Positions 34,205-55,572 of a stretch of DNA of 64,000 nt are shown here, in pieces. The notes beneath the pieces are model-generated. The model saw nothing but the letters and a program-made list of their open reading frames with translations, had not been told where the DNA came from and made no database searches. The DNA lies in contig CAIZRK010000034.1 in NCBI GenBank assembly GCA_903935355.1, positions 62,001 to 126,000 of the forward strand. Direction: 5' to 3'. The stretch's first letter is position 1; the number at the start of each line of letters is the position of its first letter. This DNA is from an uncultured beta proteobacterium (GTDB lineage Bacteria; Pseudomonadota; Gammaproteobacteria; Burkholderiales; Burkholderiaceae). Position numbers and translations under genes: made by a program.

Positions 34205-34645
34205 CTAATCAGGAATGGCACGCTTAATGAATTGAACATTACTGTTGGGTTTGATAATGATATCTTCCAAGCTATGTTTATCTAGAACAGCAAACATCCC
34301 TGCTAAGGCCGAACTCAGGATAGTTTGCAACACACACTCAGACTGAATTCGACAACCAGAATGATCGTTTAAGCACTCAGCTAATGCAAAATCACTCTCG
34401 GTATCTCTGATTACATTACCCAAAATGATGGTTTTGGGCTTTCGCGCCAAACGCATGCCCCCGCCCTTGCCTCTAATTGTCTGAATATAGCCAAGTGTTC
34501 CAAGCTGATTAACTACTTTCATGAGGTGGTTTTCTGAAATTCCATAAAACTGGGCGATTTCGGCAATAGTTGTTAGGCGCTCATTTTGACTGCCTAAATA
34601 CATTAGGACACGCAGGCTGTAATCCGAAAAGACACTTAATCTCAT
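34205..34645 (-). CDS. nsrR: Rrf2-family NO-sensing repressor, NsrR type
   Basis: 146 residues, the size and sequence pattern of NsrR: MRLSVFSDYSLRVLMYLG at the N-terminus, the winged helix IAEIAQFYGISENHLMKVVN, and a wing with RGKGGGMRLA. Three cysteines (CLNDHSGCRIQSEC, spacing 6 and 5) can hold an iron-sulfur cluster that NO destroys, as known for NsrR. It lies next to, and divergent from, the putative NO reductase operon, which has a matching operator upstream (35106-35128). A hairpin with GCGGAT/ATCCGC arms at 34138-34165 downstream may terminate it. Confidence 0.88.
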   Translation of the reverse strand: MRLSVFSDYSLRVLMYLGSQNERLTTIAEIAQFYGISENHLMKVVNQLGTLGYIQTIRGKGGGMRLARKPKTIILGNVIRDTESDFALAECLNDHSGCRIQSECVLQTILSSALAGMFAVLDKHSLEDIIIKPNSNVQFIKRAIPD

Positions 34646-34676: not shown

Positions 34677-34774
34677 CACTAGTATCCAAACATTTCGAAA
34701 AGTTCTTGTTGAGTCGGCAATACCCCTGATAGTGATTCATCAGGGTTCTGTCCGAGCAGGACCGAAATGGGGGT
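34677..34774 (-). repeat. 98-bp inverted repeat, left copy (IR-L)
   Basis: Matches the reverse complement of 46143-46240 at 96 of 98 positions; the two mismatches are at 34682 and 34752. Identity stops abruptly at both ends. Inside is a hairpin with arms CCCTGAT (34724-34730) and ATCAGGG (34739-34745) and an 8-nt loop, plus outer ACCCC/GGGGT complementarity. The copy begins 32 bp upstream of nsrR. Read towards that gene, it has the same orientation as the right copy read towards the dnr-like gene. Confidence 0.95.
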
Positions 34775-35128: not shown

Positions 35129-35154
35129 TTAAATATTTTATGGAGAACTGACAA

Positions 35155-35310
35155 ATGAGCGATCTAAATACTGAAAATGAGCCCATCCCATTCATGCAGC
35201 AACTGCTAGATAACCCGTTTATTTTGCTGTTTCTTGGTGTCATGATCCCCATGGTGGTCTACACGCTTTGGGGTGTGATTGATATCTTGACAGTCCCTCT
35301 CGCTAAGTAG
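35155..35310 (+). CDS. Small single-span membrane subunit (CbaD/subunit IIa-like)
   Basis: 51-residue protein with GGAGA nine bases upstream of the ATG. Residues about 21-42 (NPFILLFLGVMIPMVVYTLW and on) form one membrane helix. B-family (ba3-type) oxidases have a small single-helix subunit IIa encoded next to subunits II and I, and this gene lies directly before them. The sequence is too short to prove homology, so the role is an inference from position, size and topology. Confidence 0.65.
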   Translation: MSDLNTENEPIPFMQQLLDNPFILLFLGVMIPMVVYTLWGVIDILTVPLAK

Positions 35311-35361
35311 TAATTCAGCACCTCAATAACCCACCACCCATCTGAACTAAAGGATGTCAAA

Positions 35362-35901
35362 ATGAGCGCCATATTACCCCCCTCGGAACGACTTTGGTGG
35401 AAGCATCCGTTAGATCGAGTAGAGGGCACCTGGATTGTGATAGCCCTCATCTGGTGCCTGATTATGTTTGCAATGATGATTGGATGGCATATCTACGGCA
35501 AGCAAAATCTTTCTACCGAAACATATAAGACTAGTCCTGAACTTTTCCTTAAAAAAGCACAGGGAGTCGTAGATAAGTACACAGTACGCACCGAAACTTC
35601 TGAAAATATTCCTGTAGTCGCTCCTCCTCCTGGTAGTGATGTGTACTTAGTTGCAAGGCTCTGGAATTTTTGGCCAATCATTGAGTTTGAAAAGGGGAAG
35701 ACCTATCGTCTTCACTTGACATCGCTTGATTTCAACCATGGATTCTCATTACAGCCAGCCAATATCAACATTCAGATCGTACCTGGGTATGAGCATGTGG
35801 TCACAGTGACTCCGAATCAATCAGGTACTTATTCGGTAGTTTGTAATGAATATTGCGGCATCAACCATCACGCGATGGTTGGTCGTATCTACGTCAAATA
35901 G
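35362..35901 (+). CDS. CuA-containing subunit II of a B-family heme-copper enzyme
   Basis: 179 residues: one N-terminal membrane helix (about 25-47) and a periplasmic cupredoxin domain. The binuclear CuA site is complete: His126 in FNHGF, then Cys161, Cys165, His169 and Met172 in CNEYCGINHHAM. The short length with a single helix matches ba3-type subunit II rather than the two-helix A-family form. It receives electrons from a periplasmic donor, such as the cytochrome c encoded near nirS, and passes them to subunit I 12 bp downstream. AAGGA precedes the ATG. Confidence 0.93.
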   Translation: MSAILPPSERLWWKHPLDRVEGTWIVIALIWCLIMFAMMIGWHIYGKQNLSTETYKTSPELFLKKAQGVVDKYTVRTETSENIPVVAPPPGSDVYLVARLWNFWPIIEFEKGKTYRLHLTSLDFNHGFSLQPANINIQIVPGYEHVVTVTPNQSGTYSVVCNEYCGINHHAMVGRIYVK

Positions 35902-35913
35902 AGGGTCAACAAG

Positions 35914-37614
35914 ATGTCGAACACTACAACTTATAGAACTTGTCCGCGCTCAGGCCTTCAATTTGAGGCAAATGCCGAAAAACTAATGCTCATTAATGCT
36001 GTAGTAGCGGTAGTTTTTTTACTACTCGGTGGAATTTTAGCAATCGGCGTCGTACTTACTCGTTGGCCTGCAGTTCATTGGCTAGAAGCCGATACTTTTT
36101 ACCAAGTGTTAACTGCACATGGTATCGATATGCTGATCTTTTGGATTATTTTTTTTGAAGTAGCTGTACTTTATTTTTGCTCATCAACGCTACTAAGGTG
36201 TCGACTTGCTGCACCAAAAATGGCGTGGCTGGCATTTGGATTAATGTTTGTTGGGGCCATCATGAATAATGTAGCCGTCTATCAAGGAGCATCTAGCGTC
36301 ATGATGACGTCTTATGTACCTATGATGGCCGCCCCTTCCTTTTATCTTGGTTTGATACTATTTGCGGTTGGCGCATTGATTGCTTGTTTTGTTTTCCTCG
36401 GAACCTTAGTAGTAGCCAAGCGAGATAAAACCTATCAGGGCTCTGTACCCTTAGTAACCTTTGGTGCCATTGTGGCCTGCATCATTGCAGTGTTCACCAT
36501 TACTTCTGGCGCAATCATTCTCATCCCAACATTTTTCATGTCAATTGGTCTGATTGATAGCGTAGACCCGCTTGTCTATCGAACCATTTGGTGGGCTTTT
36601 GGTCACTCCTCTCAGCAAATTAACGTGGCTGCACATATCGCTATTTGGTATGCCATTGCTGCCATTGTTTTTAATGCCAAGCCAATGTCAGAAAGAGTTA
36701 GCAGGGGCGCCTTTCTTCTTTACATTCTATTTTTACAACTTGCAAGTGCACACCATTTATTAGCCGACCCCGGTGTTAGCACTGCCTGGAAAGTTGTGAA
36801 CACAAGTTACTTTATGTATTTTGCAGTATTGGCGTCTATGATTCATGGCCTTACCATTCCAGGGGCTATTGAAGTTGCTCAGCGTCAAAAAGGTTATACC
36901 AATGGATTATTTGAATGGTTACGGAAAGCCCCTTGGGGTAACCCAGTCTTTGCAGGCATGTTTATTTCATTAATTGGCTTTGGCTTTTTAGGTGGAATAT
37001 CAGGCGTGATGATGGGAACAGAGCAGCTCAATATGATTATTCACAACACTATTTATGTTCCTGGTCACTTTCACGCTACTGTTGTCATAGGAACTACCCT
37101 CTCGTTTATGGCGCTGACATATTTCTTAATTCCAGTCCTGTTTAAACGTGAAATGATCTCGCCAAAGCTTGCTCAATTGCAACCCTATTTATTTGGTCTC
37201 TCAATGTATTTCTTTTGCTTGGTCATGATGGGTGCTGGTACGCTTGGAGTCTCACGTCGTCATTGGGATATGGCATTTAATGGTGCTCCATTAGCCTATG
37301 AATGGCCTGGTGCTGCTTATTTAATGATGGGCTTAGTAGGAATTGCTGGTGTAGCCGCTATTTCTGGAGGTGCTATATATATCTATGTAACAGTAGGCTC
37401 ATTACTGTGGGGTAAGCGTCTTTCGACGGGGAATGTGAGCTCTGCTCCCACTCCAATTCCTCCTACACCAACTCCAGATGTCGTACAAACCTATGGGTCA
37501 GCAGGGTTTGCTGCTCCCGGTACATTCACATTGGCAATCGTATTTTTAGTTGCATTTATTTTGTATTACTTCATTAACTGGAAGTATTTATCCCAGGTAT
37601 GGGGGCTTAGCTAG
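35914..37614 (+). CDS. B-family heme-copper subunit I lacking the active-site Tyr; putative NO reductase (sNOR-like)
   Basis: 566 residues, about 13 membrane helices. It aligns by eye with Thermus ba3 subunit I through VDPLVYRTIWWAFGH, HHLLADPGVSTAWK, FEWLRKAPWGNPVF and IYVPGHFHATV. Ligands present: His69 (low-spin heme), His231 and His280-His281 (CuB), His385 (active heme) and His387 (low-spin heme). Oxygen reductases have Tyr four residues after the first CuB His (GHPxVY). Here the segment is GHSSQQ, so that position is Gln235. Loss of this cross-linked Tyr is a mark of NO reductases. With NsrR, an NsrR box and nirS nearby I infer NO reduction, probably like the B-family-derived sNOR/CuANOR class. 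Confidence 0.85.
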   Translation: MSNTTTYRTCPRSGLQFEANAEKLMLINAVVAVVFLLLGGILAIGVVLTRWPAVHWLEADTFYQVLTAHGIDMLIFWIIFFEVAVLYFCSSTLLRCRLAAPKMAWLAFGLMFVGAIMNNVAVYQGASSVMMTSYVPMMAAPSFYLGLILFAVGALIACFVFLGTLVVAKRDKTYQGSVPLVTFGAIVACIIAVFTITSGAIILIPTFFMSIGLIDSVDPLVYRTIWWAFGHSSQQINVAAHIAIWYAIAAIVFNAKPMSERVSRGAFLLYILFLQLASAHHLLADPGVSTAWKVVNTSYFMYFAVLASMIHGLTIPGAIEVAQRQKGYTNGLFEWLRKAPWGNPVFAGMFISLIGFGFLGGISGVMMGTEQLNMIIHNTIYVPGHFHATVVIGTTLSFMALTYFLIPVLFKREMISPKLAQLQPYLFGLSMYFFCLVMMGAGTLGVSRRHWDMAFNGAPLAYEWPGAAYLMMGLVGIAGVAAISGGAIYIYVTVGSLLWGKRLSTGNVSSAPTPIPPTPTPDVVQTYGSAGFAAPGTFTLAIVFLVAFILYYFINWKYLSQVWGLS

Positions 37615-37624
37615 GGCTAAGATC

Positions 37625-38521
37625 ATGAGATCTACATTCACTCACGTCAATGTATCGCTCACACATCAAGTGCGAAATGTACTTGGAGTTTTTAAACTGC
37701 GAATTGGTGCGATGATTATGATCACCGCCCTAGTAGGGTTGTTAGTCACACCCGGGGATCCTCTTACAGTGATTCAATGGCTGGTTATTGCAATAGCTGT
37801 TTTTCTATCCTCTGCGAGTGCTGGTGCTTTTAATCAGTATTATGAATATGAGAATGACCGCTTGATGGCTCGCACCCAAAATCGGGCCTTTGTTTCTGGA
37901 GCACTTTCTCGTTCCCCCCTTTGGCTTTGGGTTATTGCCTCATTATTAGCCGGCTCAGTATTCACAACCTGGGCTGTGATAAATGCTATCTCCGCACTCT
38001 TTGTATTTCTGGGAGCATTCTTTTATGCGGTGGTTTATACCGTATGGTTAAAACGTCGCACTTGGGTCAATATCATTATTGGTGGACTGGCAGGCAGTTT
38101 TGCCGTATTGGCTGGTGCTGCTGCCGTTGATCCTCATCTCGGACCACTACCGCTTTTATTGGCATTAGTTTTGTTCTTATGGACTCCGCCGCATTTTTGG
38201 AGTTTAGCTATTGCAAACCAAGCAGATTATGCTGCCGCAGGCGTACCTATGTTACCAGTCGTAGTTGGTCCTAAGCGAGCATCCCAAGTCGTACTCATTA
38301 GCACAATTGCACTTGTCTTATCTTCACTTCTGCCAATTTGGTTTGGCGCTGGACTGATATATCTGATCGGCGCTAGCATGGGCGGAGGCTACTTTATTTA
38401 TAAAGCTTGGCGCCTTGCTAATTCACCCTCTCGAGCAACTGCGCTTGGATCTTTTTTTGCCTCTTTAATCCAATTAAGCTTGCTTCTCGCTGGGGCAAGC
38501 CTAGATAGTATTCTGCGTTAG
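37625..38521 (+). CDS. cyoE: Protoheme IX farnesyltransferase (heme O synthase)
   Basis: UbiA-superfamily membrane enzyme that adds the farnesyl tail to heme b. The prenyl-diphosphate motif reads NQYYEYENDRLMARTQNR, with Glu at the first acidic position, a variant that occurs in some CtaB proteins. YTVWLKRRTWVN and LWTPPHFWSLAI are also conserved. I start at the ATG 37625, just past the subunit I stop, with AGGG upstream. A longer frame from 37550 runs inside subunit I. 298 residues. Its place suggests that subunit I carries heme O or A. Confidence 0.92.
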   Translation: MRSTFTHVNVSLTHQVRNVLGVFKLRIGAMIMITALVGLLVTPGDPLTVIQWLVIAIAVFLSSASAGAFNQYYEYENDRLMARTQNRAFVSGALSRSPLWLWVIASLLAGSVFTTWAVINAISALFVFLGAFFYAVVYTVWLKRRTWVNIIIGGLAGSFAVLAGAAAVDPHLGPLPLLLALVLFLWTPPHFWSLAIANQADYAAAGVPMLPVVVGPKRASQVVLISTIALVLSSLLPIWFGAGLIYLIGASMGGGYFIYKAWRLANSPSRATALGSFFASLIQLSLLLAGASLDSILR

Positions 38522-38529
38522 TCATCTAG

Positions 38530-39492
38530 ATGGAGAGGTTACAGTTATCGCAGTTCACGCCCTCCTCGCAATTTCACATTAAAAAAGATGATGACCTCCT
38601 CATAAGGCAGCGTTATTTACAAAGTATTTTAATATTTATTACAGCTCTACTTTTCTTAATCAATCCAGCATTATCTGTTACAAGCACTGTTGCACAGAAA
38701 GTATCAGCCAACGGGAATAGTTTTAATGAAGATAGCGCTCTTCGTCTTAGTCAAGCTGCTATTGGCACCATTCCTTCTGACTATACTTTTTTAGATCGTC
38801 AAGAGCGACCCGTTCGTCTTGCTAACTATCGAGGAAAACCACTACTTGTTAGTTTTATCTATACCGGCTGTTTTCAGATATGCCCCGCCACGACCAAATC
38901 CTTAAATGATGCTATCGAAAATTTAAAAAGAACCATTGGAACAGATCAATTTAATGTAATTAGCATTGGTTTTAACCAGCCATTTGATTCGCCACAAGCA
39001 TTGCGTATTTTTGCTTCAAAAAATGATATCAATGCTCCTAATTGGGAGTTTCTGAGCCCCCATGAATCTATTGTTGAATCGTTGACTCGCGATTTTGGCT
39101 TTAGTTATGCCAGCAACCAATCGGGCATTGATCATGTGCTAGAAATTACAGTGCTAGATGGACAGGGTCGCATTTACTCACAAATCTACGGTGGTAAGCT
39201 TGATCCAGAGATAATCAGCGCGCCGATATTACAGCTGCTACGAGGTGCTCCACTACCACAAGCCTTGAGCCTATCCGATGTAATTAATCGTGTGCGCCTT
39301 ATCTGCACTGTCTATGATCCGGTTACAGGAAGGTATCGCTACGACTATAGCCTAATTCTAGAGATTGCCGGAGGCTGTACATTCTTGATAGCGATGCTCT
39401 GGCTCTATATTGACGAACGGTTAAAACGTCGCCGCTCACGTAAACAAACGCTTAAAAATAACGTCTCCGTATGTGTCAGGTCACCCAAGTGA
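38530..39492 (+). CDS. SCO1/SenC-family copper chaperone
   Basis: Thioredoxin-fold protein that delivers copper to CuA sites. An N-terminal membrane anchor (about residues 29-50) is followed by the periplasmic domain with Cys114 and Cys118 (GCFQICP) and His202 (GIDHVL), the three copper ligands. A second hydrophobic segment near residues 279-297 and a basic tail make it longer (320 residues) than usual SCO proteins. It lies in the operon of a CuA enzyme, so its target is probably the 35362-35901 product. Confidence 0.9.
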   Translation: MERLQLSQFTPSSQFHIKKDDDLLIRQRYLQSILIFITALLFLINPALSVTSTVAQKVSANGNSFNEDSALRLSQAAIGTIPSDYTFLDRQERPVRLANYRGKPLLVSFIYTGCFQICPATTKSLNDAIENLKRTIGTDQFNVISIGFNQPFDSPQALRIFASKNDINAPNWEFLSPHESIVESLTRDFGFSYASNQSGIDHVLEITVLDGQGRIYSQIYGGKLDPEIISAPILQLLRGAPLPQALSLSDVINRVRLICTVYDPVTGRYRYDYSLILEIAGGCTFLIAMLWLYIDERLKRRRSRKQTLKNNVSVCVRSPK

Positions 39493-41051
39493 TAAAAGTA
39501 CCATTACAGCTTAATTCAAACAATCTTGGTAAACTGATTTTTCAGTGGCTAGATCATATTTTTAATTTAGTATTTGGAGCAAAATTAAATCCACTCTGCC
39601 ACTTAGGCGCTCTGGGATTTCTACTTTTCTGGATCATTGTCATAAGCGGTATTTACTTATACACAATGTTAGACACCTCTGTAGCTGGCGCATATCAGTC
39701 AATCAACGATTTATCACTGAAGCAAAGGTATTTAGGGGGCTTACTCCGCAGCCTCCATCATTACGCGGCAGATAGTTTTATTGTCGTAATGGTCATCCAC
39801 CTCATTCGAGAATGGGTTTTTGGGCATTATCAAGGATTTCGCCGCTTCTCCTGGCTAACTGGAGTTCCATTAATACTATTTTCCTTTGCCTGCGGCATCG
39901 GTGGCTTCTGGATTAGCTGGGATCAACTAGGGCAATTTTCTGCGCAAGCGACTGCTGAATGGCTCGATGCCATTCCCCTATTTGCCTCACCACTTACTAG
40001 AAATTTTTTAAGTATAAATACCGTTAGTGATCGCCTTTTTTCATTATTTGTATTTATTCACCTTGGGCTTCCCTTGTTGTTGTTGTTTGGGTTGTGGTTT
40101 CATATCCAAAGAATCAGTTTTGCCAATATTTTTCCACCACGCACCTTATCTGCGAGCATTTTGGCAACACTCTTCGCGCTTGCTCTACTTAGCCCAGCAC
40201 AAAGTCACCCTCCTGCAGATCTTGCATTTATACCAACAACCTTAACGATTGATTGGATTTTATTATTTTCCCACCCCCTGATGTATGTCACATCACCAGT
40301 ATTTTTATGGGGTTTACTCGTTAGCATTTTAGCCATCTTGCTCTTACTACCGTTTTTACCTAGAAGAAATGTGCCCCCCATTGCTAAAGTTGATCCTAGT
40401 AACTGCAATGGCTGTCGGCGTTGTTTTAATGATTGCCCCTACGCCGCCATCACAATGCTTTCTCATCCACATCATCGCATTGCTAAACAAATGGCTATGG
40501 TTGATCCTGATTTATGTGCGAGTTGTGGAATCTGTGTAGGGGCATGCCCATCATCTACACCATTTCGTAGTGTTGCTGAACTAGTCACCGGCATCGATCT
40601 ACCTCATTCTCCCATCACCCATTTGCGGGCGCAACTTCAAAAATCTTTAGCTCATACAGAAAAAGCGCCAAGAATAGTTGTTTTTGGTTGCGATCATGGT
40701 GTTCGTGTCGATACTCTTCGCGACCCAGATATCTGCGCATTTAGCCTTACTTGTATTGGCATGCTACCACCATCCTTTATTGAATACGCATTGCGAGATG
40801 GCGCATCAGCTGTTTTGATAAGTGGCTGCCAATCAACTGCTTGTGAATTTAGACTTGGGCAGCGATGGACAGAAAACCGAATCTTAGGAACCCGGGAACC
40901 TGCTTTTCGAAATTCAGCATTTCATGTTAATAAGATACAGGTATCTTGGGCTAATGTAGGAGAAGAAGAAACCCTTAGGGCTGCAATAGAAGAACTTAAA
41001 AAAAATATTGGATTCTTTGAAAAATTTATTCCACCTTCAGAAATAACCTAA
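39471..41051 (+). CDS. Cytochrome b / 2x[4Fe-4S] ferredoxin / MvhD-like fusion
   Basis: 526 residues in three parts. Residues about 20-240 are a cytochrome b (b6-type) N-terminal domain with four helices and bis-His pairs in RSLHHYAADSFIVVMVIH and FIHLGLPLLLLFGLWFH. Next come two [4Fe-4S] motifs, Cys312/315/318/322 and Cys349/352/355/359. From about 400 onward is an MvhD-like domain (hydrogenase delta / iron-sulfur subunit) with Cys407, 422, 428, 453 and 458 and the LPPSFIEYALRDGA block. It overlaps the SCO gene by 22 bp; a GTG at 39489 is another start. Presumably a membrane electron-transfer protein; donor and acceptor unknown. Confidence 0.88.
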   Translation: MCQVTQVIKVPLQLNSNNLGKLIFQWLDHIFNLVFGAKLNPLCHLGALGFLLFWIIVISGIYLYTMLDTSVAGAYQSINDLSLKQRYLGGLLRSLHHYAADSFIVVMVIHLIREWVFGHYQGFRRFSWLTGVPLILFSFACGIGGFWISWDQLGQFSAQATAEWLDAIPLFASPLTRNFLSINTVSDRLFSLFVFIHLGLPLLLLFGLWFHIQRISFANIFPPRTLSASILATLFALALLSPAQSHPPADLAFIPTTLTIDWILLFSHPLMYVTSPVFLWGLLVSILAILLLLPFLPRRNVPPIAKVDPSNCNGCRRCFNDCPYAAITMLSHPHHRIAKQMAMVDPDLCASCGICVGACPSSTPFRSVAELVTGIDLPHSPITHLRAQLQKSLAHTEKAPRIVVFGCDHGVRVDTLRDPDICAFSLTCIGMLPPSFIEYALRDGASAVLISGCQSTACEFRLGQRWTENRILGTREPAFRNSAFHVNKIQVSWANVGEEETLRAAIEELKKNIGFFEKFIPPSEIT

Positions 41052-41052
41052 A

Positions 41053-41571
41053 GTGTATAAGCTAAAGACATTTCAATTGATACGACTATTTGGACAATTT
41101 TTGCTCTATGGTGTATTTGCTATCTTTATTGGGGTATTTTCTCAATGGCCAACCTATCAAGTATTAACTCCTAATCAGGCCATTATTAAGTTAAGCTTTA
41201 GCCATCATGGAAAACCGATTTCTGATTGTGAAAAATCAACTGATTCACAATTGGCAAAGCTTCCGCCAAATATGCGCGCACCAATTCGCTGTCCACGCGA
41301 ACGCTCTCCAGTAAATATTGAGTTATCAGTTGATGGGACTATTACTTATCAACATGCTGCTCTGCCAGCTGGACTCTCTAGGGATGGTGCCTCAGCTGTC
41401 TATCACCGGATGGTAGTTAATGCGGGGCCACATCGCATTTTAGCCCGCCTTAACGACGATATCCGCAAGCCAGATTTATACCAATCTCGTGATGAAGTCA
41501 TCACTCTAGATCCTGGACAAATCCTAGTCATTGACTTTGATTCAACAAAAGGCGGAGTAACTTTTCAATGA
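41053..41571 (+). CDS. Hypothetical membrane-anchored periplasmic protein
   Basis: 172 residues from a GTG start directly after the fusion gene's stop. One N-terminal membrane segment (about residues 11-30) precedes a soluble domain probably outside the cytoplasm, rich in beta strands. It has two cysteines (SDCEKS and IRCPRE) and a histidine-bearing SFSHHGKPISDC stretch. I do not recognise the family. Its stop overlaps the next gene's start by 4 bp, so it is coexpressed with the heme-copper-like protein and may help assemble it or bind a metal. Confidence 0.75.
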   Translation: MYKLKTFQLIRLFGQFLLYGVFAIFIGVFSQWPTYQVLTPNQAIIKLSFSHHGKPISDCEKSTDSQLAKLPPNMRAPIRCPRERSPVNIELSVDGTITYQHAALPAGLSRDGASAVYHRMVVNAGPHRILARLNDDIRKPDLYQSRDEVITLDPGQILVIDFDSTKGGVTFQ

Positions 41572-43010
41572 CCCACAAATTAGATACCTGTTTTGGCCAT
41601 CAACCAATACTTACTGGCGTATCTAACCTTAAAGATGTGTATTTTTCTATACCAATTCCTGTAGATGCTCGACGTCTTTTAGCGCGTGGCTGGCTTTGGC
41701 TTGGCTTACTCGCACTGATTTCTTCCGGAGTATTTTCATTACTATTAGTAGCCTCCCGAACTCCGGGTATTAACCAAATTCTTCCAGGTAGCGATTTTTT
41801 TAAAACAGCTCTCGTTCTTCATGTTGATTTATCAGTTTTGGTGTGGTTTGTGGCTTTTGCTGGTTTATTGTGGAGTATCAATGGCAATCGCATTGGCATC
41901 CTATGGGGCTGGACTGCGTTGGTCTTATCTGGTATTGGTACCGGCGTCATGTCGATCTCCGCTTTTGTTGCACAAGGTGATCCCATCATGGCAAATTACA
42001 TACCCGTTATTAATAACAAGTTATTTATTTCTGGACTACTCGTTTTCGCTCTAGGTTCAGCAGTGTTGGTCATGCGTGGATTGCTTAGCGCTCCCAAAGT
42101 GGGTTTACTCAAAGATGGGGCTAGCGCCCTCCGTTTTGGTACCAATGCAAGTACGATTGCTTCTGCAATTGCACTGCTTGCCTTTGGGTGGTCTTTCGCC
42201 ACACTTTCACAAAACATCAGCGGTAAAGCGTATTATGAAATCTTGTTTTGGGGTGGTGGCCATACTCTTCAATTTACTTGGACACTACTGATGTTGGTAT
42301 CTTGGTTGTGGCTTGGTAGTGCTTGTGGTGCTCGCACACTACTCTCACCTCGACTAACGACGCTAATGTTTGCCTTGGCATTAGCTAGTGTATTTGTTAC
42401 TCCTTATGCCTATCTTGCATATGATGTGACTACAGTCGAGCATCGTAATCTACATACTTGGGCGATGCGCTTAGGGGGTGGTCTCGCAATAGGTCCAATT
42501 GCGCTATCTTTATGTTTTGGTTTATGGCACGCCTCCATCACTAATGACACCACTAAACCATTAAGATCGGCACTCATTGCCTCTATGTGCTTATTTGCTG
42601 CGGGCGGCTTTATCGGTGCCCTTATTAGTGGCAATAACGTCAAAATTCCAGCACACTATCATGGCTGTATTGTGGGAGTGACGCTCGCATTCATGGGCTT
42701 GGTCTACCATCTTCTACCCCAACTGGGATACGGTGCTGTACGCGGTAAATTGGCCAACACTCAACCTTACATCTACGGCATTGGCCAATTTATACACATC
42801 ATTGGATTGGTATGGTCTGGAGGTTATGGGGTTCAGCGTAAAGTAGCCGGGGCCGATCAAGTACTCCGCAGCACTGGCGAAATTGCGGGCATGGGCTTAA
42901 TGGGGATTGGTGGGCTTGGGGCGATTATTGGTGGATTGTTGTTTATAGTGATTGTCATTTCATCGGTCCGAAATCCCGCCCCTCATCCTATCAAAGATTT
43001 GCCTTTTTGA
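41568..43010 (+). CDS. Divergent heme-copper subunit I-like membrane protein
   Basis: 480 residues, about 12 membrane helices. Heme-copper hallmarks: His85 in LHVDLSVLVWF (low-spin heme), His232 in WGGGHTLQF, and His363/His365 in IPAHYHGCIVG. The adjacent His-His pair for CuB is missing; in that region only EHRNLH (His292, His296) is seen. Four residues after His232 is Phe, not Tyr, and no Glu as in classical NorB is there. So it keeps heme ligands but has an altered or absent CuB site. It could be a divergent NO reductase or a non-catalytic heme carrier. No own CuA or cytochrome c subunit accompanies it. Confidence 0.8.
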   Translation: MTHKLDTCFGHQPILTGVSNLKDVYFSIPIPVDARRLLARGWLWLGLLALISSGVFSLLLVASRTPGINQILPGSDFFKTALVLHVDLSVLVWFVAFAGLLWSINGNRIGILWGWTALVLSGIGTGVMSISAFVAQGDPIMANYIPVINNKLFISGLLVFALGSAVLVMRGLLSAPKVGLLKDGASALRFGTNASTIASAIALLAFGWSFATLSQNISGKAYYEILFWGGGHTLQFTWTLLMLVSWLWLGSACGARTLLSPRLTTLMFALALASVFVTPYAYLAYDVTTVEHRNLHTWAMRLGGGLAIGPIALSLCFGLWHASITNDTTKPLRSALIASMCLFAAGGFIGALISGNNVKIPAHYHGCIVGVTLAFMGLVYHLLPQLGYGAVRGKLANTQPYIYGIGQFIHIIGLVWSGGYGVQRKVAGADQVLRSTGEIAGMGLMGIGGLGAIIGGLLFIVIVISSVRNPAPHPIKDLPF

Positions 43011-44914
43011 TGATTACCCGCTTTCAGACTCTATTACAGTGGATCTTTATGCACACAGAAGCACTATTTAACCGTGCCTTTGGTGATCAATTTAATCCCT
43101 TGTACCATCTTGGCGCCATCACTTTTTTTCTGTTTTGGGTTGTTTCTACATCTGGCATATACCTTTACGCTTTTTTTGAAACAGGCGTTGCAGATGCTTA
43201 TGCTTCAGTAGAGTCAATTACCCATCTACAGTGGTTTTTTGGTGGCATCTTGCGCAGCATTCATCGCTATGCCTCTGATGCAATGGTATTGACGATGTTA
43301 TTACACATGGTGCGCTATTTTGCATTTGATCGCTTTCGTGGTTTTCGTTGGTTTTCATGGATTACAGGTGTGGCGCTCATTTGGCTTATCTATATTTCAG
43401 GTATTAACGGTTTCATGTTGCCATGGGATAAGCTCGCTCAGTTTGTGATTGTCACATCCTTTGAATGGCTCGATTCATTACCAAGCTTTGGGGGTACCTT
43501 AAACCGCAATTTTATCTACCCCAGTAGTGTTACTGATCGTTTTTTTTCACTATTAGCCTTCATGCATATTGGAATTTCATTAGTAGTGTTATTAGTGATG
43601 CTTATTCATATACAGCGAGTTCCAAAGGCCAAAACAACCCCGCCCAAAGCGATTGTCATTAGTCTGCTAGTCAGTTTATTAAGTCTATCGCTCATTAAAC
43701 CAATTCTTAGTCAAATAGGACCAGCAAACTTAAGTGTTGCAGTAAGCCAAATCAATCTTGATTGGTTTTATCTAGCAATCTTTCCCCTCTTATACGAAGA
43801 ATCACTTTTACTCATGTGGGGTTTGGTTATATTCATCACCATTACAATCGCAGCACTTCCCTGGACGTCTTTTCGCCTAAATCGACAAGCTAGAGGCGTC
43901 TTCCAAATGATAGCAAAAGGTAGTACAGTGCCTATCACCATTCGGACTAGTGAAACCTTGCTAGACGCTGGCCTGCGTCAAGGTATGGATCTACTTTATG
44001 AGTGCCGTAATGGTGGATGTGGAATTTGTATTTGCACAATCACGCATGGGGAGGTCAATCATGGCTTATATCAACGTAGCGTACTAACTGAAGCGATGAG
44101 ATCGCAGGGTAAAGCATTGATGTGTTGTGCTACTCCACTTTCGAATCTCGCAATTGAAGTAAATAATAATCCTCTTATAGCCCACCAATCGATGAAAACT
44201 TATACTGGGCAAGTAAAGTCTATAGAGCGAATCAGCCCCAATCTTATTATCTTAATAATTACTTTGCCAGATGAGGAAAGAATTGATTTTATTGCCGGTC
44301 AATATATCAATATTATTTTAGAAGATGGTCGACGGCGCGCATTTTCCTTTGCAAATTCTCCGCATAATAATAGTGTCATTGAGCTACATATTCGCCGTAT
44401 ACCAAATGGGTTTTTTACCAACGTAGTATTTACAGAACTTAAAGTGGGTGATTACCTTCAATTTGAAGGCCCTTTGGGTAAATTTAAATTAAATGACAGT
44501 AAGTTGCCTATAATTTTTATTGCTGCCTCAACTGGTTTTGGCCCCATTAAGAGCATTATTGAAGATGCTTTTTACCGTGGCATTACAAGACCAATGTGGC
44601 TTTATTGGGGTGTTCGTAAACTAGAAGATTTGTATATGCTCGATCTACTAGAAGACTGGGAACGAGAAAATCCTCATTTTCATGCGGTGCCTGTAATATC
44701 CGAAGCAATTTCAGAAAACGTCTGGTTAGGGCGTCAAGGCTTAGTTCATGAAGTGGTATTGCAAGATTTTCCTAATCTGATTGGACATGAAATGTACGTG
44801 TGCGGTTCTTTGCAAATGGTTGATTGCGTAGTACCAGCTTTTATTGCCCAAGGATTAGAGGAGGATGCTTGCTTTTCAGATGTATTTCTACCATCCAAAT
44901 CAATGAGTGTCTAG
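43010..44914 (+). CDS. Cytochrome b / [2Fe-2S] ferredoxin / FAD-NAD(P) reductase fusion
   Basis: 634 residues. An N-terminal cytochrome b domain (to about 235) has bis-His pairs in LRSIHRYASDAMVLTMLLH and FMHIGISLVVLLVMLIH. A plant-type ferredoxin domain follows with Cys332, 337, 340 (CRNGGCGIC) and a last Cys near 372. From about 395 to the end is a ferredoxin-NADP reductase fold: RRAFSFANSP (FAD), IAASTGFGPIKSI (pyridine nucleotide) and MYVCGS. I use the ATG at 43010, overlapping the preceding stop by one base. It should move electrons between NAD(P)H and the membrane; direction is not evident. Confidence 0.88.
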   Translation: MITRFQTLLQWIFMHTEALFNRAFGDQFNPLYHLGAITFFLFWVVSTSGIYLYAFFETGVADAYASVESITHLQWFFGGILRSIHRYASDAMVLTMLLHMVRYFAFDRFRGFRWFSWITGVALIWLIYISGINGFMLPWDKLAQFVIVTSFEWLDSLPSFGGTLNRNFIYPSSVTDRFFSLLAFMHIGISLVVLLVMLIHIQRVPKAKTTPPKAIVISLLVSLLSLSLIKPILSQIGPANLSVAVSQINLDWFYLAIFPLLYEESLLLMWGLVIFITITIAALPWTSFRLNRQARGVFQMIAKGSTVPITIRTSETLLDAGLRQGMDLLYECRNGGCGICICTITHGEVNHGLYQRSVLTEAMRSQGKALMCCATPLSNLAIEVNNNPLIAHQSMKTYTGQVKSIERISPNLIILIITLPDEERIDFIAGQYINIILEDGRRRAFSFANSPHNNSVIELHIRRIPNGFFTNVVFTELKVGDYLQFEGPLGKFKLNDSKLPIIFIAASTGFGPIKSIIEDAFYRGITRPMWLYWGVRKLEDLYMLDLLEDWERENPHFHAVPVISEAISENVWLGRQGLVHEVVLQDFPNLIGHEMYVCGSLQMVDCVVPAFIAQGLEEDACFSDVFLPSKSMSV

Positions 44915-45881
44915 ATTGTTAAAACATCTTGAATTTTATAGTAAGCCTCCAATATTACTACGGAGAACTGCCTTAATTTGCGCCGTACTTGTTTTGATTA
45001 TTATTGGTATTAGTGCTTTTATTCGCCTATCTGGAAACGGATTAGGATGCTCACCTTGGCCAGTTTGCTACGGGGAAATTTTGCAAGGAACACCGCAATC
45101 TATTCATAATGCTATTCAACTGCAAGCAAGCCCACCAATTTTGACTGCTCGCATTGCCCACCGCATTTTAGCAGTTGTACTTTTGCCCATCATTTTGATT
45201 TTGATAATACTTGGTTATACCCTCCGCCCAAAGTCCACTGATGCTCGTTGGTTGTCGGCGATTGCGTTGATACTGGTTATATTTCTAGCGTTTCTAGGAC
45301 GCTGGACTTCTGGCAGGCACATTCCGATTGTTACCTTAGGCAATTTGATCGCAGGATTCTTGCTATTTGGGCTGTGCTGGAGATTATTTATATCCAAGCT
45401 CAATCAATCAAGTATAAAACCCCTCTCCAAGAGTATCCGACTCTGGCAAATATTAACGATTTCCCTGCTCTTAGCCCTTATTGTTTTTGGTGGCTTGGTA
45501 AGTAGTAGTTATGCTGGATTAAGCTGTCCTAATCTGGCAGACTGCTTTTTGCCGACTTCCCTTGAATTGCAATCATTAAATCCCTTGCAGATTCCCACCC
45601 TCAATAAAAGTCTTACTGATATCCCGATTCATCCTCACGGGATTACGGCTAATACTATTCACTTATGGCTTTCATTGGTAACTGCTGTATTTCTTGTTAT
45701 TTTATCAGTCAATCTTTTTCGCAACAAACGTCCCATCGCCAGCTTGTTTCTTCTAATTTTTCTAAGTTCAGAAATTATGTTGGGTCTTTTATTAGGACAT
45801 AATAATCTGCCTCTATCGCTGGTTATTACTCACAACCTTTTGGCGGCTACTCTACTAGCAACCCTGGTTGGCATTGATTAG
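44907..45881 (+). CDS. ctaA: Heme A synthase-like protein (CtaA/COX15 family)
   Basis: 324 residues, eight membrane segments in two four-helix halves. Both family Cys pairs are present (LGCSPWPVC near 49 and LSCPNLADC near 209), and His in IAHRILA, IHLWLSL and VITHNLLAA. The fourth expected heme-ligand His in the first half is replaced: the segment reads IPIVTLGNLIAG. It starts with GTG and overlaps the preceding stop by 8 bp. With cyoE it suggests that the operon makes its own heme A or a related cofactor for subunit I. Confidence 0.85.
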   Translation: MSRLLKHLEFYSKPPILLRRTALICAVLVLIIIGISAFIRLSGNGLGCSPWPVCYGEILQGTPQSIHNAIQLQASPPILTARIAHRILAVVLLPIILILIILGYTLRPKSTDARWLSAIALILVIFLAFLGRWTSGRHIPIVTLGNLIAGFLLFGLCWRLFISKLNQSSIKPLSKSIRLWQILTISLLLALIVFGGLVSSSYAGLSCPNLADCFLPTSLELQSLNPLQIPTLNKSLTDIPIHPHGITANTIHLWLSLVTAVFLVILSVNLFRNKRPIASLFLLIFLSSEIMLGLLLGHNNLPLSLVITHNLLAATLLATLVGID

Positions 45882-46343: not shown

Positions 46344-47030
46344 ATGGAATCTGCTCAGCTAAAAATACAAAAATTTCTATTGCAAATGCCCCTCTTTAGT
46401 GGCATGTCACATGAGGAGCTTGAACATGTCGCTCAAAATACCACAGAGCTTTATTTGCGGCGTGGTGAAACTCTCTTTAGACAAAATGAGTCATGCGTAG
46501 GATTTCATCTTGTTCTATTTGGACAAATCAAACTGGGATTTTCTACTCCTCAAGGGATAGAAAAAGTTGTAGCAATTATTAATCCTGGACAAAGCTTTGG
46601 TGAGGCGTTGATGTTTCTGAAAAGACCTTATATTGTCTTCTCTCAAGCTCTTACTGATTCACTGGTACTACATATATCTCAATCAGCCATTTTACAAAAG
46701 ATCAATAGTGACCCAGAATTTACCTGCAAAATGTTAGCGAGTATGAGTCAACGTTTACATAGCTTAATTACAGATATTGAAGAATATTCATTGCAAACTG
46801 GGGCACAAAGAGTAATTGGATATTTGATGCGTAATATTGAAGACTCAGATCAAACTAATACTGATGTGATACTTGATTGCAGTAAATTAGTAATTGCCTC
46901 GCGGCTTAATCTCACACCAGAGCACTTCTCTAAAATATTGCATGACCTTAAATCACGCGGTCTTATTGATATCCATGGTAAACAGATCACTATCTTTAAT
47001 AAACAAGCATTACTAAATCATAAAGGATAG
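46344..47030 (+). CDS. Crp/Fnr-family regulator, Dnr/NnrR-like
   Basis: 228 residues: cyclic-nucleotide-binding-like domain (about 10-130), dimer helix, and helix-turn-helix (VIASRLNLTPEHFSKILHDL, about 185-204). The N-terminal Cys cluster of FNR is absent, so it is not an oxygen-sensing Fe-S FNR. Dnr/NnrR proteins of this type activate nir and nor genes in response to NO, probably through heme. It converges on nirN with a 4-bp gap and shares an upstream repeat with nsrR. The specific Dnr assignment is contextual. Confidence 0.82.
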   Translation: MESAQLKIQKFLLQMPLFSGMSHEELEHVAQNTTELYLRRGETLFRQNESCVGFHLVLFGQIKLGFSTPQGIEKVVAIINPGQSFGEALMFLKRPYIVFSQALTDSLVLHISQSAILQKINSDPEFTCKMLASMSQRLHSLITDIEEYSLQTGAQRVIGYLMRNIEDSDQTNTDVILDCSKLVIASRLNLTPEHFSKILHDLKSRGLIDIHGKQITIFNKQALLNHKG

Positions 47031-47034
47031 TTTT

Positions 47035-48615
47035 TTAGTGACTTGTTCCCTCTGAACGAGTAATTTTATTAAAAATATTGTATTTACCTGAGGGCTTATT
47101 CATCGGAATTCGCTTTATCTCTTCAAGTGATTTAGAATCATAGACGACTAAGGCACCGTCCTTATCCCAGATGCTAACAAGAGCATATTTTCCATCGCGG
47201 GTAAATTCAGTATGAGCGGCAATCTTACCAAGGCTCGGTCTTAATTGAGCTACAACTTCTAACTTATTTTTATCAATAATCTGAATGATATCGTTATGCT
47301 TTGGGTCATTAAATACATCAACCCAAGCGTAAGTTGTTTTTTCATGGCTACGCATAAAAAAACCAGGGCCTAAGGTCTCAATTTCTTTTATGACTTGCCA
47401 TGTTTTCATGTCAATTACAGTAACAACACCATTTTTCAAATTTGGAGTTGCCATGACTGCCCTACCATCAAGTTTCCATGAAATCCCTGAGCCTAAATGT
47501 GGTAGCCCAGGCAAGTTAATATCAGCAATCTTTCGTCCAATATTTAAATTAATCACCTGACCCAGACCTTGGCGAGAAGAACCAATCACGTGATCATAGG
47601 ATGGATCAAAGAAAAAATCATCAAGATAATCATCTAGCTTAATTCGGCGCTTTGTAAAAATTTCTTTTGATGGAATTACCTCCCCCATACGGTAGTCATG
47701 AACTAAGCCAGTGTTTTTTTGAGGGCCACTTTGAGCATAGCCAATTTCCCAAAGTTCAGGCATATCTTTTAAGGCGACAATAAAACTACTGCGCGGTGCA
47801 GCATCATAAACTGCAGATGCTCGCGATGATTTTCCAAGACCGTCTTGTATATCAATAATCTTAATGGGGGATAAATCTTTAGCGTCAAGCGCTACCAGAG
47901 TATGTGGAAAATAATTTGCAACTAATACGTAGCGACCATCTCCAGAAATAGCCAAATTGCGAGTATTAATACCCGCCCTAATCTCTGCTGTGTAACATAA
48001 ATTCCAGATATCGTATTTTGCTATCCAGCCATCACGTGAAGCAAAGTACACATAACGACCATCTGGTGAAAATTTTGGCCCTCCATGTAGAGCATAGCGT
48101 GTCTCAAGCCTGGCAATTGATTCAAAACGATCACCGTCTAATATAGTCGCGTGATGATCTCCTAATTCAACAACCACAAAAAGATTCAAAGGATCAGCCA
48201 AAAAAACAGGTTTATCAGATTTACCGCAAGCATTATTTAGTTTTATCCTAGATGAAAGAATTTGTGGCAAGCCCCAGGAAGGTGTTTCAGCCAATGGCGA
48301 ATAAATGAGTTCACCAACTGCAGCAATTTCCTTTGAAGTTAATATTGTAGAAAATCCAGGCATTTGCGTAGCCATTCGACCATCAGAGATGACGGTAATG
48401 GCCTGTGGCCTCTTTAACCTCTCTAGGTTTCCTGGCAGTAAAGCAGGCCCAGTTCCACCTAAACGATCTGCCCCATGACAAGATGCACAATGCATTTGAT
48501 AGTTCTGATTAGCGTCATCTACTTTCTGGGCGCTAGCAAAGGTCATAAATCCAAAAATAAATATGCTAATTACAAAAATTCTAAATACACCAAGTGGGCG
48601 TAATAAGGCATTCAT
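47035..48615 (-). CDS. nirN: NirN, cytochrome c / d1-type propeller (dihydro-heme d1 dehydrogenase)
   Basis: Periplasmic protein that performs the last step of heme d1 synthesis, oxidising dihydro-heme d1, and helps hand it to NirS. A signal peptide (to about 29) precedes a cytochrome c domain with CASCH at 43-47. An eight-bladed d1-binding propeller similar to NirS fills the rest, with KPSGKYNIFNKI near the end, parallel to the NirS C-terminus. 526 residues. It overlaps nirJ by 4 bp and is the last gene of the nir operon. Confidence 0.92.
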   Translation of the reverse strand: MNALLRPLGVFRIFVISIFIFGFMTFASAQKVDDANQNYQMHCASCHGADRLGGTGPALLPGNLERLKRPQAITVISDGRMATQMPGFSTILTSKEIAAVGELIYSPLAETPSWGLPQILSSRIKLNNACGKSDKPVFLADPLNLFVVVELGDHHATILDGDRFESIARLETRYALHGGPKFSPDGRYVYFASRDGWIAKYDIWNLCYTAEIRAGINTRNLAISGDGRYVLVANYFPHTLVALDAKDLSPIKIIDIQDGLGKSSRASAVYDAAPRSSFIVALKDMPELWEIGYAQSGPQKNTGLVHDYRMGEVIPSKEIFTKRRIKLDDYLDDFFFDPSYDHVIGSSRQGLGQVINLNIGRKIADINLPGLPHLGSGISWKLDGRAVMATPNLKNGVVTVIDMKTWQVIKEIETLGPGFFMRSHEKTTYAWVDVFNDPKHNDIIQIIDKNKLEVVAQLRPSLGKIAAHTEFTRDGKYALVSIWDKDGALVVYDSKSLEEIKRIPMNKPSGKYNIFNKITRSEGTSH

Positions 48616-49823
48616 ACGCTTGCCTTAACCCCCTCAATTCGAAAATACGGCATGATCTTGACTCGCTCCCTGGCCTTATCTAAATCAACTCCAATTTCTG
48701 CATCAGATAAATAGCAGGCAGGATCTTCCTGCCAAGGATCACCAGTAAGCTGTAATGCACGAACACGGGTATTACCACCACAGATATCAAAATACATGCA
48801 CTCTGAACAACGTCCTTTAACTAAACGCGGTGTCGATTTCAAACCAGCCATTAAGTCATCTGATATATCACTCCAAATTTCTGAAAATGGCCGATTGCGA
48901 ACGTTTCCTAAATTATGATGCCACCAAAAAGTATCTGGATGTACATTGCCTAAGTTATCGATATTACCGATATTGACGCCTGAAGAATTCCCGCCCCATT
49001 GACTTAACTTAGCTCTTAAACGAGCCTCTTGCTCAGGAAATTTTTGCTGCACCCAGTGCAGTAAATAAACTCCATCCGCATCGTTGTTGCCAGTCACGAA
49101 TTCTTTTTGTACACCTTCTTCTATATGCTTCCAGCAGGTATTGAAAAGTAAATCCATAGCATTTCTAGTGGTTTCAAGAAATGCATCATGTCCACGATTC
49201 TTATTGCCTCTTCCTGCGTAATTAAGATGGGATAAGTAAAACTTATCAATTGATTCATCGTCAACTAACTTTAGCATGGCAGGTAAATCAAAAGCATTAT
49301 CTTGCGTTAAAGTAAACCGAATTCCGACCTTAATGTTGGCATCACGGCATAGGCGTACTGCATGCAAAGAAGCATCGTAGGCACCGACTTTACGCCGGAA
49401 TACATCATGCGTATCTCGCATACCATCTAGACTGATGCCAACATAATCAAACCCAACTTGTGCAATTGTCTTTATATTAGATTCATTTATTAAGGTACCA
49501 TTTGTAGAGAGACCTACATAAAATCCCATGGCTTTAGCGCGTTGCGCTAAATCATAAATATCAGGGCGCAAAAGTGGCTCTCCACCTGACAAAATCAATA
49601 CTGGAACACCAAAATTCTGTAAATCATCCATGACGGCGTAAGCCTCTTGAGTACTTAACTCCCCACCGAAATCTTTATCTGCAGAAATTGAATAACAATG
49701 TTTACATGTTAAATTGCAACGTCGAATGAGATTCCAAATTACCACTGGGCCTTTGGGGTTTATCTTTTTTTCCAAAGGGCTCGGGCTAGCAATTTCTCGC
49801 ATATATTGTGTTATTCGAAACAT
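48612..49823 (-). CDS. nirJ: Heme d1 biosynthesis radical SAM protein NirJ
   Basis: Radical SAM enzyme that removes the propionate side chains of the didecarboxysiroheme ring to give the keto groups of heme d1. The catalytic [4Fe-4S] motif is Cys36-x3-Cys40-x2-Cys43 (CNLTCKHC), followed by LSGGEPLLRPD. A SPASM-like C-terminal Cys set (CSECMYFDICGG ... DPACYL) carries the second cluster. 403 residues, typical. It lies between nirH and nirN. Confidence 0.96.
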   Translation of the reverse strand: MFRITQYMREIASPSPLEKKINPKGPVVIWNLIRRCNLTCKHCYSISADKDFGGELSTQEAYAVMDDLQNFGVPVLILSGGEPLLRPDIYDLAQRAKAMGFYVGLSTNGTLINESNIKTIAQVGFDYVGISLDGMRDTHDVFRRKVGAYDASLHAVRLCRDANIKVGIRFTLTQDNAFDLPAMLKLVDDESIDKFYLSHLNYAGRGNKNRGHDAFLETTRNAMDLLFNTCWKHIEEGVQKEFVTGNNDADGVYLLHWVQQKFPEQEARLRAKLSQWGGNSSGVNIGNIDNLGNVHPDTFWWHHNLGNVRNRPFSEIWSDISDDLMAGLKSTPRLVKGRCSECMYFDICGGNTRVRALQLTGDPWQEDPACYLSDAEIGVDLDKARERVKIMPYFRIEGVKASV

Positions 49824-49833
49824 AATAATTCCT

Positions 49834-50361: not shown

Positions 50362-50374
50362 AGCTCATCCTCCT

Positions 50375-51845: not shown

Positions 51846-51847
51846 AC

Positions 51848-53429: not shown

Positions 53430-53443
53430 TGCCTAACACCACA

Positions 53444-53476: not shown

Positions 53477-53483
53477 GCAGCAT

Positions 53484-53822: not shown

Positions 53823-53829
53823 AAATTTC

Positions 53830-55572
<1,743 letters not shown>

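What the first reader, a model, noticed from the sequence alone, without database searches (positions are those of the whole stretch)
35155..45881. A self-contained operon: CuA-NOR-like enzyme plus two cytochrome b electron-input fusions, cofactor synthesis and metal insertion
Ten genes on one strand, many overlapping, combine a three-subunit B-family enzyme, heme O and heme A synthases, a SCO chaperone, a second heme-copper-like protein, an unknown anchored protein and two membrane cytochrome b fusions. I know of no described NO reductase system with this set. The likeliest role is linking NAD(P)H- or ferredoxin-level electrons to NO reduction, or bypassing the bc1 complex. This is the best candidate for a previously undescribed system here.
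Basis: inference. Interest (0 to 1): 0.85.

Follow-up and report, generated by a model that had tools for sequence, protein, structure and literature searches.

The report
Nitric oxide reductase with dedicated electron feeders
A small-genome bacterium carries a ten-gene operon for a rarely studied nitric oxide reductase (eNOR) together with membrane proteins that look built to feed it electrons from inside the cell, and the same set recurs in many other bacteria, which gives testable candidates for how this maker of the greenhouse gas nitrous oxide gets its electrons.

Summary
In detail: ten same-strand genes (35155-45881), closely packed, between an Rrf2-family regulator and a Crp/Fnr-family regulator plus a nirS cluster. 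Subunit I has Gln where oxidases have the cross-linked Tyr, so it is eNOR, not CuA-NOR (bNOR); it is the only NO reductase candidate found in this genome. The set is not peculiar to it. Of 80 fetched relatives of the second heme-copper-like protein, 70 show eNOR on the same contig and all 80 at least one cytochrome b fusion. In 369 class genomes, eNOR and the cytochrome b-4Fe4S-FlpD fusion occur in 34 each, together in 33; in the phylum sample 27 of 28 further eNOR genomes carry it. The fusions are di-heme cytochromes b with a retained quinol-site-like DW motif and exchangeable cytoplasmic heads: 4Fe4S-FlpD, ferredoxin-FNR, once a diflavin reductase. The second heme-copper-like protein keeps heme histidines but no conserved CuB His-His pair. 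The 172-aa protein is an unassigned, membrane-anchored beta-sandwich. Most likely, cytosolic NAD(P)H/ferredoxin electrons cross the membrane through the cytochromes b to CuA of eNOR; electron path and NO activity are inferred. The enzyme is known; the partner set was in no paper I could search, but the key eNOR paper was not available.

The parts
35155..35310 (+). eNOR subunit IIa-like, 51 aa
   Evidence: conserved short frame in front of subunit II in the window and four other loci; label IIa by analogy with ba3 oxidases (recalled)
35362..35901 (+). eNOR subunit II with CuA site
   Evidence: COX2 domain; C161, C165, H169, M172 in 123 of 123 copies
35914..37614 (+). eNOR catalytic subunit I
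   Evidence: COX1; best PDB matches are ba3 oxidases; Q235 and H69, H231, H280, H281, H385, H387 in 125 of 125 copies
37625..38521 (+). heme O synthase (ctaB/cyoE)
   Evidence: TIGR01473 above cut-off; ATG at 37625
38530..39492 (+). SCO-type copper chaperone
   Evidence: SCO1-SenC 7e-13; C114, C118, H202 in 138-139 of 143 rows
39471..41051 (+). cytochrome b-2x[4Fe-4S]-FlpD fusion
   Evidence: Pfam domains; heme His, DW motif and 12 Cys conserved in 115 rows apart from one or two gaps at the His
41053..41571 (+). P172, one membrane helix plus beta-sandwich, no family assigned
   Evidence: no Pfam/NCBIfam hit; model pLDDT 94.8; C59 and C80 invariant in 71 rows
41568..43010 (+). HCO2, heme-copper-oxidase-like protein without a conserved CuB His-His pair
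   Evidence: COX1 2.6e-12; heme-copper fold; ligands
43010..44914 (+). cytochrome b-[2Fe-2S] ferredoxin-FNR fusion
   Evidence: Pfam domains, closest NCBIfam model of the head BenC 1e-55; conserved sites; ATG at 43010
44907..45881 (+). heme A synthase (ctaA)
   Evidence: COX15-CtaA 6.5e-34; no NCBIfam hit
34205..34645 (-). Rrf2-family regulator, NsrR/RirA-like
   Evidence: Rrf2 above cut-off; NsrR and RirA models match equally and both below cut-off
34677..34774 (+). copy 1 of a 98-bp inverted repeat
   Evidence: 98% identical to the second copy; only two copies in the held genome
46143..46240 (-). copy 2 of the 98-bp inverted repeat
46344..47030 (+). Crp/Fnr-family regulator (Dnr-like by position)
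   Evidence: cNMP_binding and HTH_Crp_2; every NCBIfam match below cut-off
47035..55560 (-). heme d1 nitrite reductase cluster: nirN/nirS-like, nirJ, three AhbA/AhbB-type genes (nirD/L/G/H), nirF-like, nirS
   Evidence: NirJ above cut-off, AhbA/B; Cytochrom_D1 in 47035-48615, 51848-53038 and 53830-55560

Best explanation
The cluster is an eNOR-type nitric oxide reductase operon: catalytic core (IIa, II with CuA, I), its maturation genes (heme O synthase, SCO, heme A synthase) and dedicated membrane electron-input modules. Each input module is a six-helix di-heme cytochrome b whose C-terminal end lies in the cytoplasm and carries an exchangeable redox head: two 4Fe-4S sites plus an FlpD [2Fe-2S] domain (the commonest one in the Pseudomonadota sampled), a ferredoxin-FNR head (NAD(P)H), or a diflavin reductase. 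Electrons from ferredoxin- or NAD(P)H-level donors in the cytosol enter the head, cross the membrane through the two b hemes and reach the periplasm-facing CuA of eNOR, directly or helped by the anchored P172 and the CuB-less HCO2, so that NO made by NirS is reduced to N2O without obligate use of quinol, bc1 and a soluble cytochrome c. Shown by sequence: the parts, their cofactor ligands, recurrent synteny and co-occurrence. Inferred: NO as substrate, direction of electron flow, contact with CuA, and the roles of P172 and HCO2.
For: Gln at the active-site Tyr position and all heme/CuB His in 125 of 125 copies, tree. Only NOR candidate among four COX1-family frames of a 94%-complete genome that has nirS. 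eNOR and FlpD fusion together in 33 of 369 class genomes with one of each alone; 27 of 28 further phylum eNOR genomes, including ones where the fusion is not next to eNOR. Heme His, DW motif and cluster Cys conserved. Heads exchange on one scaffold: FlpD, FNR, diflavin; FNR and diflavin heads are ordinary NAD(P)H inputs. No cytochrome c or Rieske gene in the operon.
Against: No experiment. eNOR loci of Thermus and Thermomicrobium plasmids show no fusion nearby, so eNOR can exist without it (their chromosomes not searched). G693 and G854 have eNOR without a detected FlpD fusion, though G693's eNOR sits at a contig end. The DW motif could mean quinol is the donor or acceptor. The genome has cytochrome c1, so a bc1 route exists. 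The FlpD head has no known donor in this organism. Co-occurrence tests do not correct for kinship.
Confidence: 0.5

Rival explanations
1. The cytochromes b work at the quinone pool: they oxidise quinol at a Qo-like site and pass electrons to CuA as a bc1 substitute, while the cytoplasmic head adds electrons or takes the low-potential electron (bifurcation).
For: D-W conserved in 115 of 115 FlpD fusions and D in 75 of 75, W in 74 of 75 FNR fusions at the place of the cytochrome b PEWY motif (the motif and its role are recalled); alignment with yeast cytochrome b runs through residues 25-307.
Against: No Rieske or c1 gene in the operon; FNR and diflavin heads are typical electron inputs; helices G and H of bc1 cytochrome b are absent.
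Confidence: 0.22
2. The fusions serve maturation, not respiration: they bring cytosolic electrons to heme A synthesis (CtaA) or to disulfide/copper reduction through P172 and SCO.
For: Genes for heme O/A synthesis and SCO lie in the operon; P172 has two invariant Cys; ferredoxin/FNR pairs serve Cox15 in mitochondria (recalled).
Against: Several loci keep the fusions without ctaA nearby (57 of 80 have it, many contigs cut); the FlpD fusion follows eNOR even where unlinked; the genome also holds an aa3-type oxidase, and the 36 other same-genus genomes lack the fusion.
Confidence: 0.1
3. The system removes NO, or reduces O2 at low oxygen, as a stress device rather than carrying denitrification.
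For: Rrf2-family regulator next to it; a hemerythrin-family gene follows the core on the Defluviimonas plasmid; low-potential input without clear energy gain suits detoxification (inference).
Against: Linked to a complete-looking nirS/heme d1 cluster here and to nir genes in 19 of 80 and 21 of 57 fetched loci; the oxidase Tyr is absent.
Confidence: 0.13
4. The fusions, P172 and HCO2 are mere neighbours without a functional tie to eNOR.
For: No experiment ties them.
Against: 33 of 35 class genomes with either eNOR or FlpD fusion have both, also where unlinked; 70 of 80 HCO2 contigs show eNOR, most of the other ten cut by contig ends.
Confidence: 0.05

Closest known systems
eNOR family of nitric oxide reductases derived from B-family oxidases (PMC8756737, PMC10734462, PMC4653789, PMC11388526: passages seen)
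   Same: Subunit I with Gln at the Tyr position, cupredoxin subunit II upstream, B-family relatives.
   Different: The operon adds cytochrome b fusions, P172, HCO2 and cofactor genes, which none of the passages I saw mentions.
CuA-NOR / bNOR of Bacillus
   Same: CuA-bearing subunit II and B-family type subunit I.
   Different: Active-site residue Asn there (PMC8756737 Table A4), Gln here in 125 of 125.
Cytochrome bc1/b6f
   Same: Four heme His, PEWY-like DW motif, closest PDB chains are cytochrome b6.
   Different: Helices G and H replaced by soluble redox heads; no Rieske or c1 in the operon.
HdrA2/MvhD (FlpD) electron-transfer module
   Same: The FlpD head matches NF040770 HdrA2 positions 571-768 at 2e-23.
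   Different: No HdrA flavin part in the protein; the module is fused to a membrane cytochrome b.
ba3-type oxygen reductases
   Same: Fold, CuA, small subunit, heme and CuB His.
   Different: No Tyr at the cross-link position.

Membership tests
eNOR | B-family-like heme-copper subunit I | tested here: met
   best PDB matches ba3 oxidases, E 4e-57
eNOR | Gln in place of the active-site Tyr | tested here: met
   Q235, 125 of 125 copies; aligned with Tyr of 7deg and of five oxidases
eNOR | heme and CuB His ligands | tested here: met
   six His in 125 of 125
eNOR | cupredoxin subunit II with CuA upstream | tested here: met
   COX2, CuA ligands 123 of 123
eNOR | NO reductase activity | not testable with these tools
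   no biochemistry
CuA-NOR/bNOR and sNOR | Asn at the active-site position | tested here: not met
   Gln; Asn given for both in PMC8756737 Table A4. N237 lies two residues on and is also conserved
ba3-type oxygen reductase | cross-linked Tyr | tested here: not met
   Gln
bc1/b6f-type cytochrome b (for the fusions) | four heme b His | tested here: met
   present in every row with a letter there: 113-114 of 115 and 74 of 75
bc1/b6f-type cytochrome b (for the fusions) | PEWY-type Qo motif | tested here: inconclusive
   DW conserved at that place; quinol binding not tested
bc1/b6f-type cytochrome b (for the fusions) | Rieske and cytochrome c1/f partners encoded with it | tested here: not met
   no such gene in the operon; cytochrome c1 lies elsewhere in the genome
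catalytic heme-copper oxidase/NOR subunit I (for HCO2) | fold and heme ligands | tested here: met
   Z 31.0, rmsd 3.3, 415 aligned; H85, H363, H365 in 98 of 98
catalytic heme-copper oxidase/NOR subunit I (for HCO2) | three CuB His including the helix VII pair | tested here: not met
   H232 in 98 of 98, but 91 of 98 have no HH at 255-305; profile alignment is loose there and would pair E291-H292 with HH

The most novel reading that the evidence does not exclude
The cytochrome b modules run as quinol-driven electron bifurcation powered by NO: at the retained Qo-like site one quinol electron goes to CuA and NO (E0' of NO/N2O about +1.17 V, PMC10390337 passage), the other crosses bL and bH to the FlpD/4Fe-4S or FNR head and makes reduced ferredoxin or NAD(P)H. 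Denitrification would then directly produce low-potential reductant.
Probability: 0.1. Interest if true: 0.93.

Novelty: new variant of a known kind. Interest (0 to 1): 0.7.

Why it matters
How eNOR receives its electrons was not stated in any passage I could read. A near one-to-one partner (cytochrome b-4Fe4S-FlpD) with exchangeable reductase heads, plus two further conserved proteins of unknown role, gives direct candidates that can be deleted and purified. If cytosolic NAD(P)H or ferredoxin feeds NO reduction without bc1 and cytochrome c, models of denitrifier energetics and N2O release need a further branch. It also marks eNOR-only denitrifiers, such as this genome, whose NO reductase general family tools call a cytochrome oxidase.

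Tried and rejected
bNOR/CuA-NOR, sNOR and ba3 oxidase identities were rejected by the active-site residue. 'Only in this genome' was rejected, although none of the 36 other same-genus genomes searched has a match to the FlpD fusion at E<=1e-30. Chance neighbourhood was rejected by co-occurrence. P172: no Pfam hit in the window protein and only scattered hits at E 0.005 or more among 70 members, no PDB sequence hit to E 10, no PHROG, no Foldseek hit under 0.001; VIA-align best Z 8.7, rmsd 2.8, 93 aligned, to a domain of HGSNAT among unrelated beta-sandwich rows, so no function follows. HCO2: no PDB sequence hit to E 1, placed by fold. A scan for FNR boxes gave 70 hits against 53 expected (3 of 100 shuffles reached 70) and none in the leader 34646-35154. 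The promoter/terminator scan found fewer promoter-like sites than shuffles (16 against 31) and somewhat more terminator-like ones (16 against 11); one promoter-like site lies in the leader at 34958-34986, which proves nothing. Rfam: only the tRNA in 30000-60000. A lead from a NO-growing enrichment without bc1 was dropped because that organism uses cNOR (PMC10390337, passages). Literature: ten searches found no paper on these fusions as eNOR partners; FlpD plus nitric oxide reductase plus cytochrome b gave one paper, where FlpD is a table entry for a single accession. The main eNOR paper (Murali et al., PNAS 2024, recalled) was not found; the DOI I tried was from memory and may be wrong, so absence in print is not established.

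Rows left out before counts: class genomes with split or truncated eNOR or not fetched as loci (G688, G754, G789) and G896 count in the tallies but not in the locus table; copies below my length limits were left out of the residue counts. L086 is a contig with HCO2, P172 and both fusions but no eNOR in the 6 kb upstream that I hold.
Full report
WHAT IS THERE. Ten + strand genes at 35155-45881 lie between a divergent Rrf2-family gene, which matches NsrR and RirA models equally and below both cut-offs, and a Crp/Fnr-family gene; a heme d1 nitrite reductase cluster with nirS follows on the other strand. Gaps run from 51 bases down to an overlap of 22 (two starts corrected). Families: a 51-aa frame (IIa), CuA subunit II, COX1 subunit I, heme O synthase, SCO, cytochrome b-4Fe4S-FlpD, a 172-aa protein without a family (P172), a second, distant COX1 protein (HCO2), cytochrome b-2Fe2S-FAD-NAD reductase, heme A synthase.

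WHAT THE ENZYME IS. A profile search of solved structures puts subunit I with B-family ba3 oxidases. In that alignment Q235 takes the place of the oxidase Tyr; Q235 and six metal/heme His are present in 125 of 125 copies. PMC8756737 (passages) gives Gln as the mark of eNOR, Asn for sNOR and CuA-NOR, Asp for gNOR. In a tree the window protein groups with Gln-bearing proteins, including those of Thermus and Thermomicrobium plasmids, apart from five Tyr-bearing B-type enzymes (several long branches meet, so inner placements are unsure). The held genome (1.8 Mb, 44 contigs, 94% complete) has four COX1-family frames: an aa3-type oxidase next to its subunit II, a CcoN-type one, this eNOR and HCO2 (the two oxidase types named by reading the sequences). 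So eNOR is the only NOR candidate found beside nirS. Cytochrome c1 is present.

HOW WIDESPREAD. None of 36 other same-genus genomes matches the FlpD fusion at E<=1e-30, but 3 of 24 genomes from the rest of the order do: G046 has both fusions, G047 the FlpD and G058 the FNR fusion. A scan of the species-genome collection with HCO2 found 394 relatives, of which the best 80 were fetched. In these 80, many cut by contig ends, the neighbours found were P172 79, FlpD fusion 75, SCO 73, FNR fusion 72, eNOR subunit I 70, heme O synthase 66, subunit II 64, IIa 62, ctaA 57. Among the 53 with at least 9 kb upstream and 3 kb downstream: eNOR 52, FlpD 50, FNR 50, P172 53. All 80 have at least one of the two fusions; the five without FlpD (L051, L061, L067, L075, L083) have the FNR fusion. 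Record names include Rhodoferax, Curvibacter, Ramlibacter, Acidovorax, Comamonas, Simplicispira, Castellaniella, Herbaspirillum and gammaproteobacterial MAGs.

CO-OCCURRENCE. In an even draw of 369 genomes of the class, eNOR (E<=1e-100) is in 34 and the FlpD fusion (E<=1e-80) in 34. 33 have both; G693 has only eNOR (which ends at a contig end), G645 only the fusion (77% complete, its contig breaks in SCO), 334 neither (Fisher p 8e-45, kinship not corrected). In 398 genomes of the phylum, 30 have eNOR; apart from G000 and G356, 27 of 28 have the fusion: 13 near eNOR, 10 further away or on other contigs, 4; G854 has none. In the order, P172 is in 34 of 399 and cytochrome b fusions of this kind in 34 of 379, 33 genomes shared; G346 has only the latter, G422 only the former and may not be in the smaller draw. 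Of 57 eNOR loci fetched from class and phylum, many short, 35 hold the FlpD fusion and the same 35 hold P172; 15 hold HCO2, none the FNR fusion at the locus. The core is thus eNOR, FlpD fusion and P172; HCO2, FNR fusion and ctaA are optional and seen mostly in Burkholderiales and near kin. A Defluviimonas plasmid (Alphaproteobacteria) has the seven-gene core without HCO2 and FNR fusion, then a hemerythrin-family gene. Counter-cases: eNOR loci of two Thermus plasmids and one Thermomicrobium plasmid show no fusion nearby.

THE ELECTRON-INPUT MODULES. The membrane part of the FlpD fusion resembles cytochrome b6 (E 2.5e-18) and aligns with yeast cytochrome b from residue 25 to 307. Six hydrophobic segments precede its head, so the head should face the cytoplasm (inference from cytochrome b topology). 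Conserved in the FlpD fusions: four heme His in every row with a letter there (113-114 of 115), D261-W262 in 115 of 115, eight 4Fe-4S Cys and four FlpD Cys in 115 of 115; in the FNR fusions four His (74 of 75, one gap), D252 75 of 75, W253 74 of 75, four [2Fe-2S] Cys 75 of 75. The head is exchangeable on one cytochrome b scaffold: 4Fe4S-FlpD, whose best long match is the end of HdrA2; ferredoxin-FNR, best match BenC; and in G586 flavodoxin-FAD-NAD, a diflavin reductase. Of 30 best loci in the order draw, 26 show the FNR head, 3 the FlpD head, and one is cut (one locus per genome, so this is no census of heads). FNR and diflavin heads are ordinary NAD(P)H inputs, which is why I favour electron input over output.

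P172 AND HCO2. P172 folds with high confidence (pLDDT 94.8) as one membrane helix and a beta-sandwich; two Cys are invariant in 71 rows, H51 and H127 nearly so. No relative was found by sequence, and none clearly by fold. HCO2 (pLDDT 89.4) has the heme-copper fold (Z 31.0, rmsd 3.3, 415 aligned). It keeps H85, H363, H365 (heme ligands) and H232, H410 in 98 of 98, but 91 of 98 have no HH pair at 255-305 and the seven exceptions are not at one place; the profile alignment is loose there and would pair E291-H292 with the HH pair. I read it as a heme-bearing, probably CuB-less relative; a changed metal site is not excluded.

MECHANISM. Favoured: cytosolic NAD(P)H or ferredoxin-level donor, head, bH, bL, CuA, heme, NO site, with P172 and HCO2 as docking or relay parts. 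Shown: parts, ligands, synteny. Inferred: every transfer step, NO activity, direction. The DW motif keeps quinol use, including bifurcation, open. Maturation service and detoxification are lesser rivals.

AGAINST PRIOR KNOWLEDGE. The reductase meets every eNOR feature that I tested; activity was not testable. The label CuA-NOR/bNOR fails on the active-site residue. I found no paper that names the fusions, P172 or HCO2 as eNOR partners, but the main eNOR paper was not available, so the novelty of the partner set is provisional.

Noticed in passing
window 34677-34774 and 46143-46240: A 98-bp, 98%-identical inverted repeat flanks the operon; these are the only two copies found in the held genome. 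Each copy lies just upstream of a regulator gene in the same orientation relative to it, so it may be a duplicated control region of the two regulators, or a relic of mobility.
   Followed up: partly
L188 2941-5481 (G586): Third head type: cytochrome b fused to flavodoxin, FAD and NAD domains (846 aa), next to an eNOR operon.
   Followed up: partly
L296 9983-11668 (NZ_LR027520.1, Thermus thermophilus NAR1 plasmid): A Gln-bearing eNOR-type subunit I lies a few kb from an annotated nitrite reductase, whereas PMC7694296 (passages seen) reports no NO reductase genes there. In my alignment the helix X His that ligates the low-spin heme reads Lys in both Thermus copies.
   Followed up: partly
L289 6639-8484 (G513): A cytochrome b-FNR fusion stands alone, about 1.9 Mb from the eNOR operon of the same genome.
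   Followed up: no
L237 (G976) and L303/L307 (G915): Two FlpD fusions in tandem.
   Followed up: no
L061, L067 (Castellaniella), L083 (Thermomonas MAG), L051 (Ramlibacter MAG): Operons without a detected FlpD fusion that keep the FNR fusion, P172 and HCO2.
   Followed up: no
L054 and L076: Two P172 genes in one operon, one after each cytochrome b fusion, which suggests that P172 pairs with the cytochrome b.
   Followed up: no
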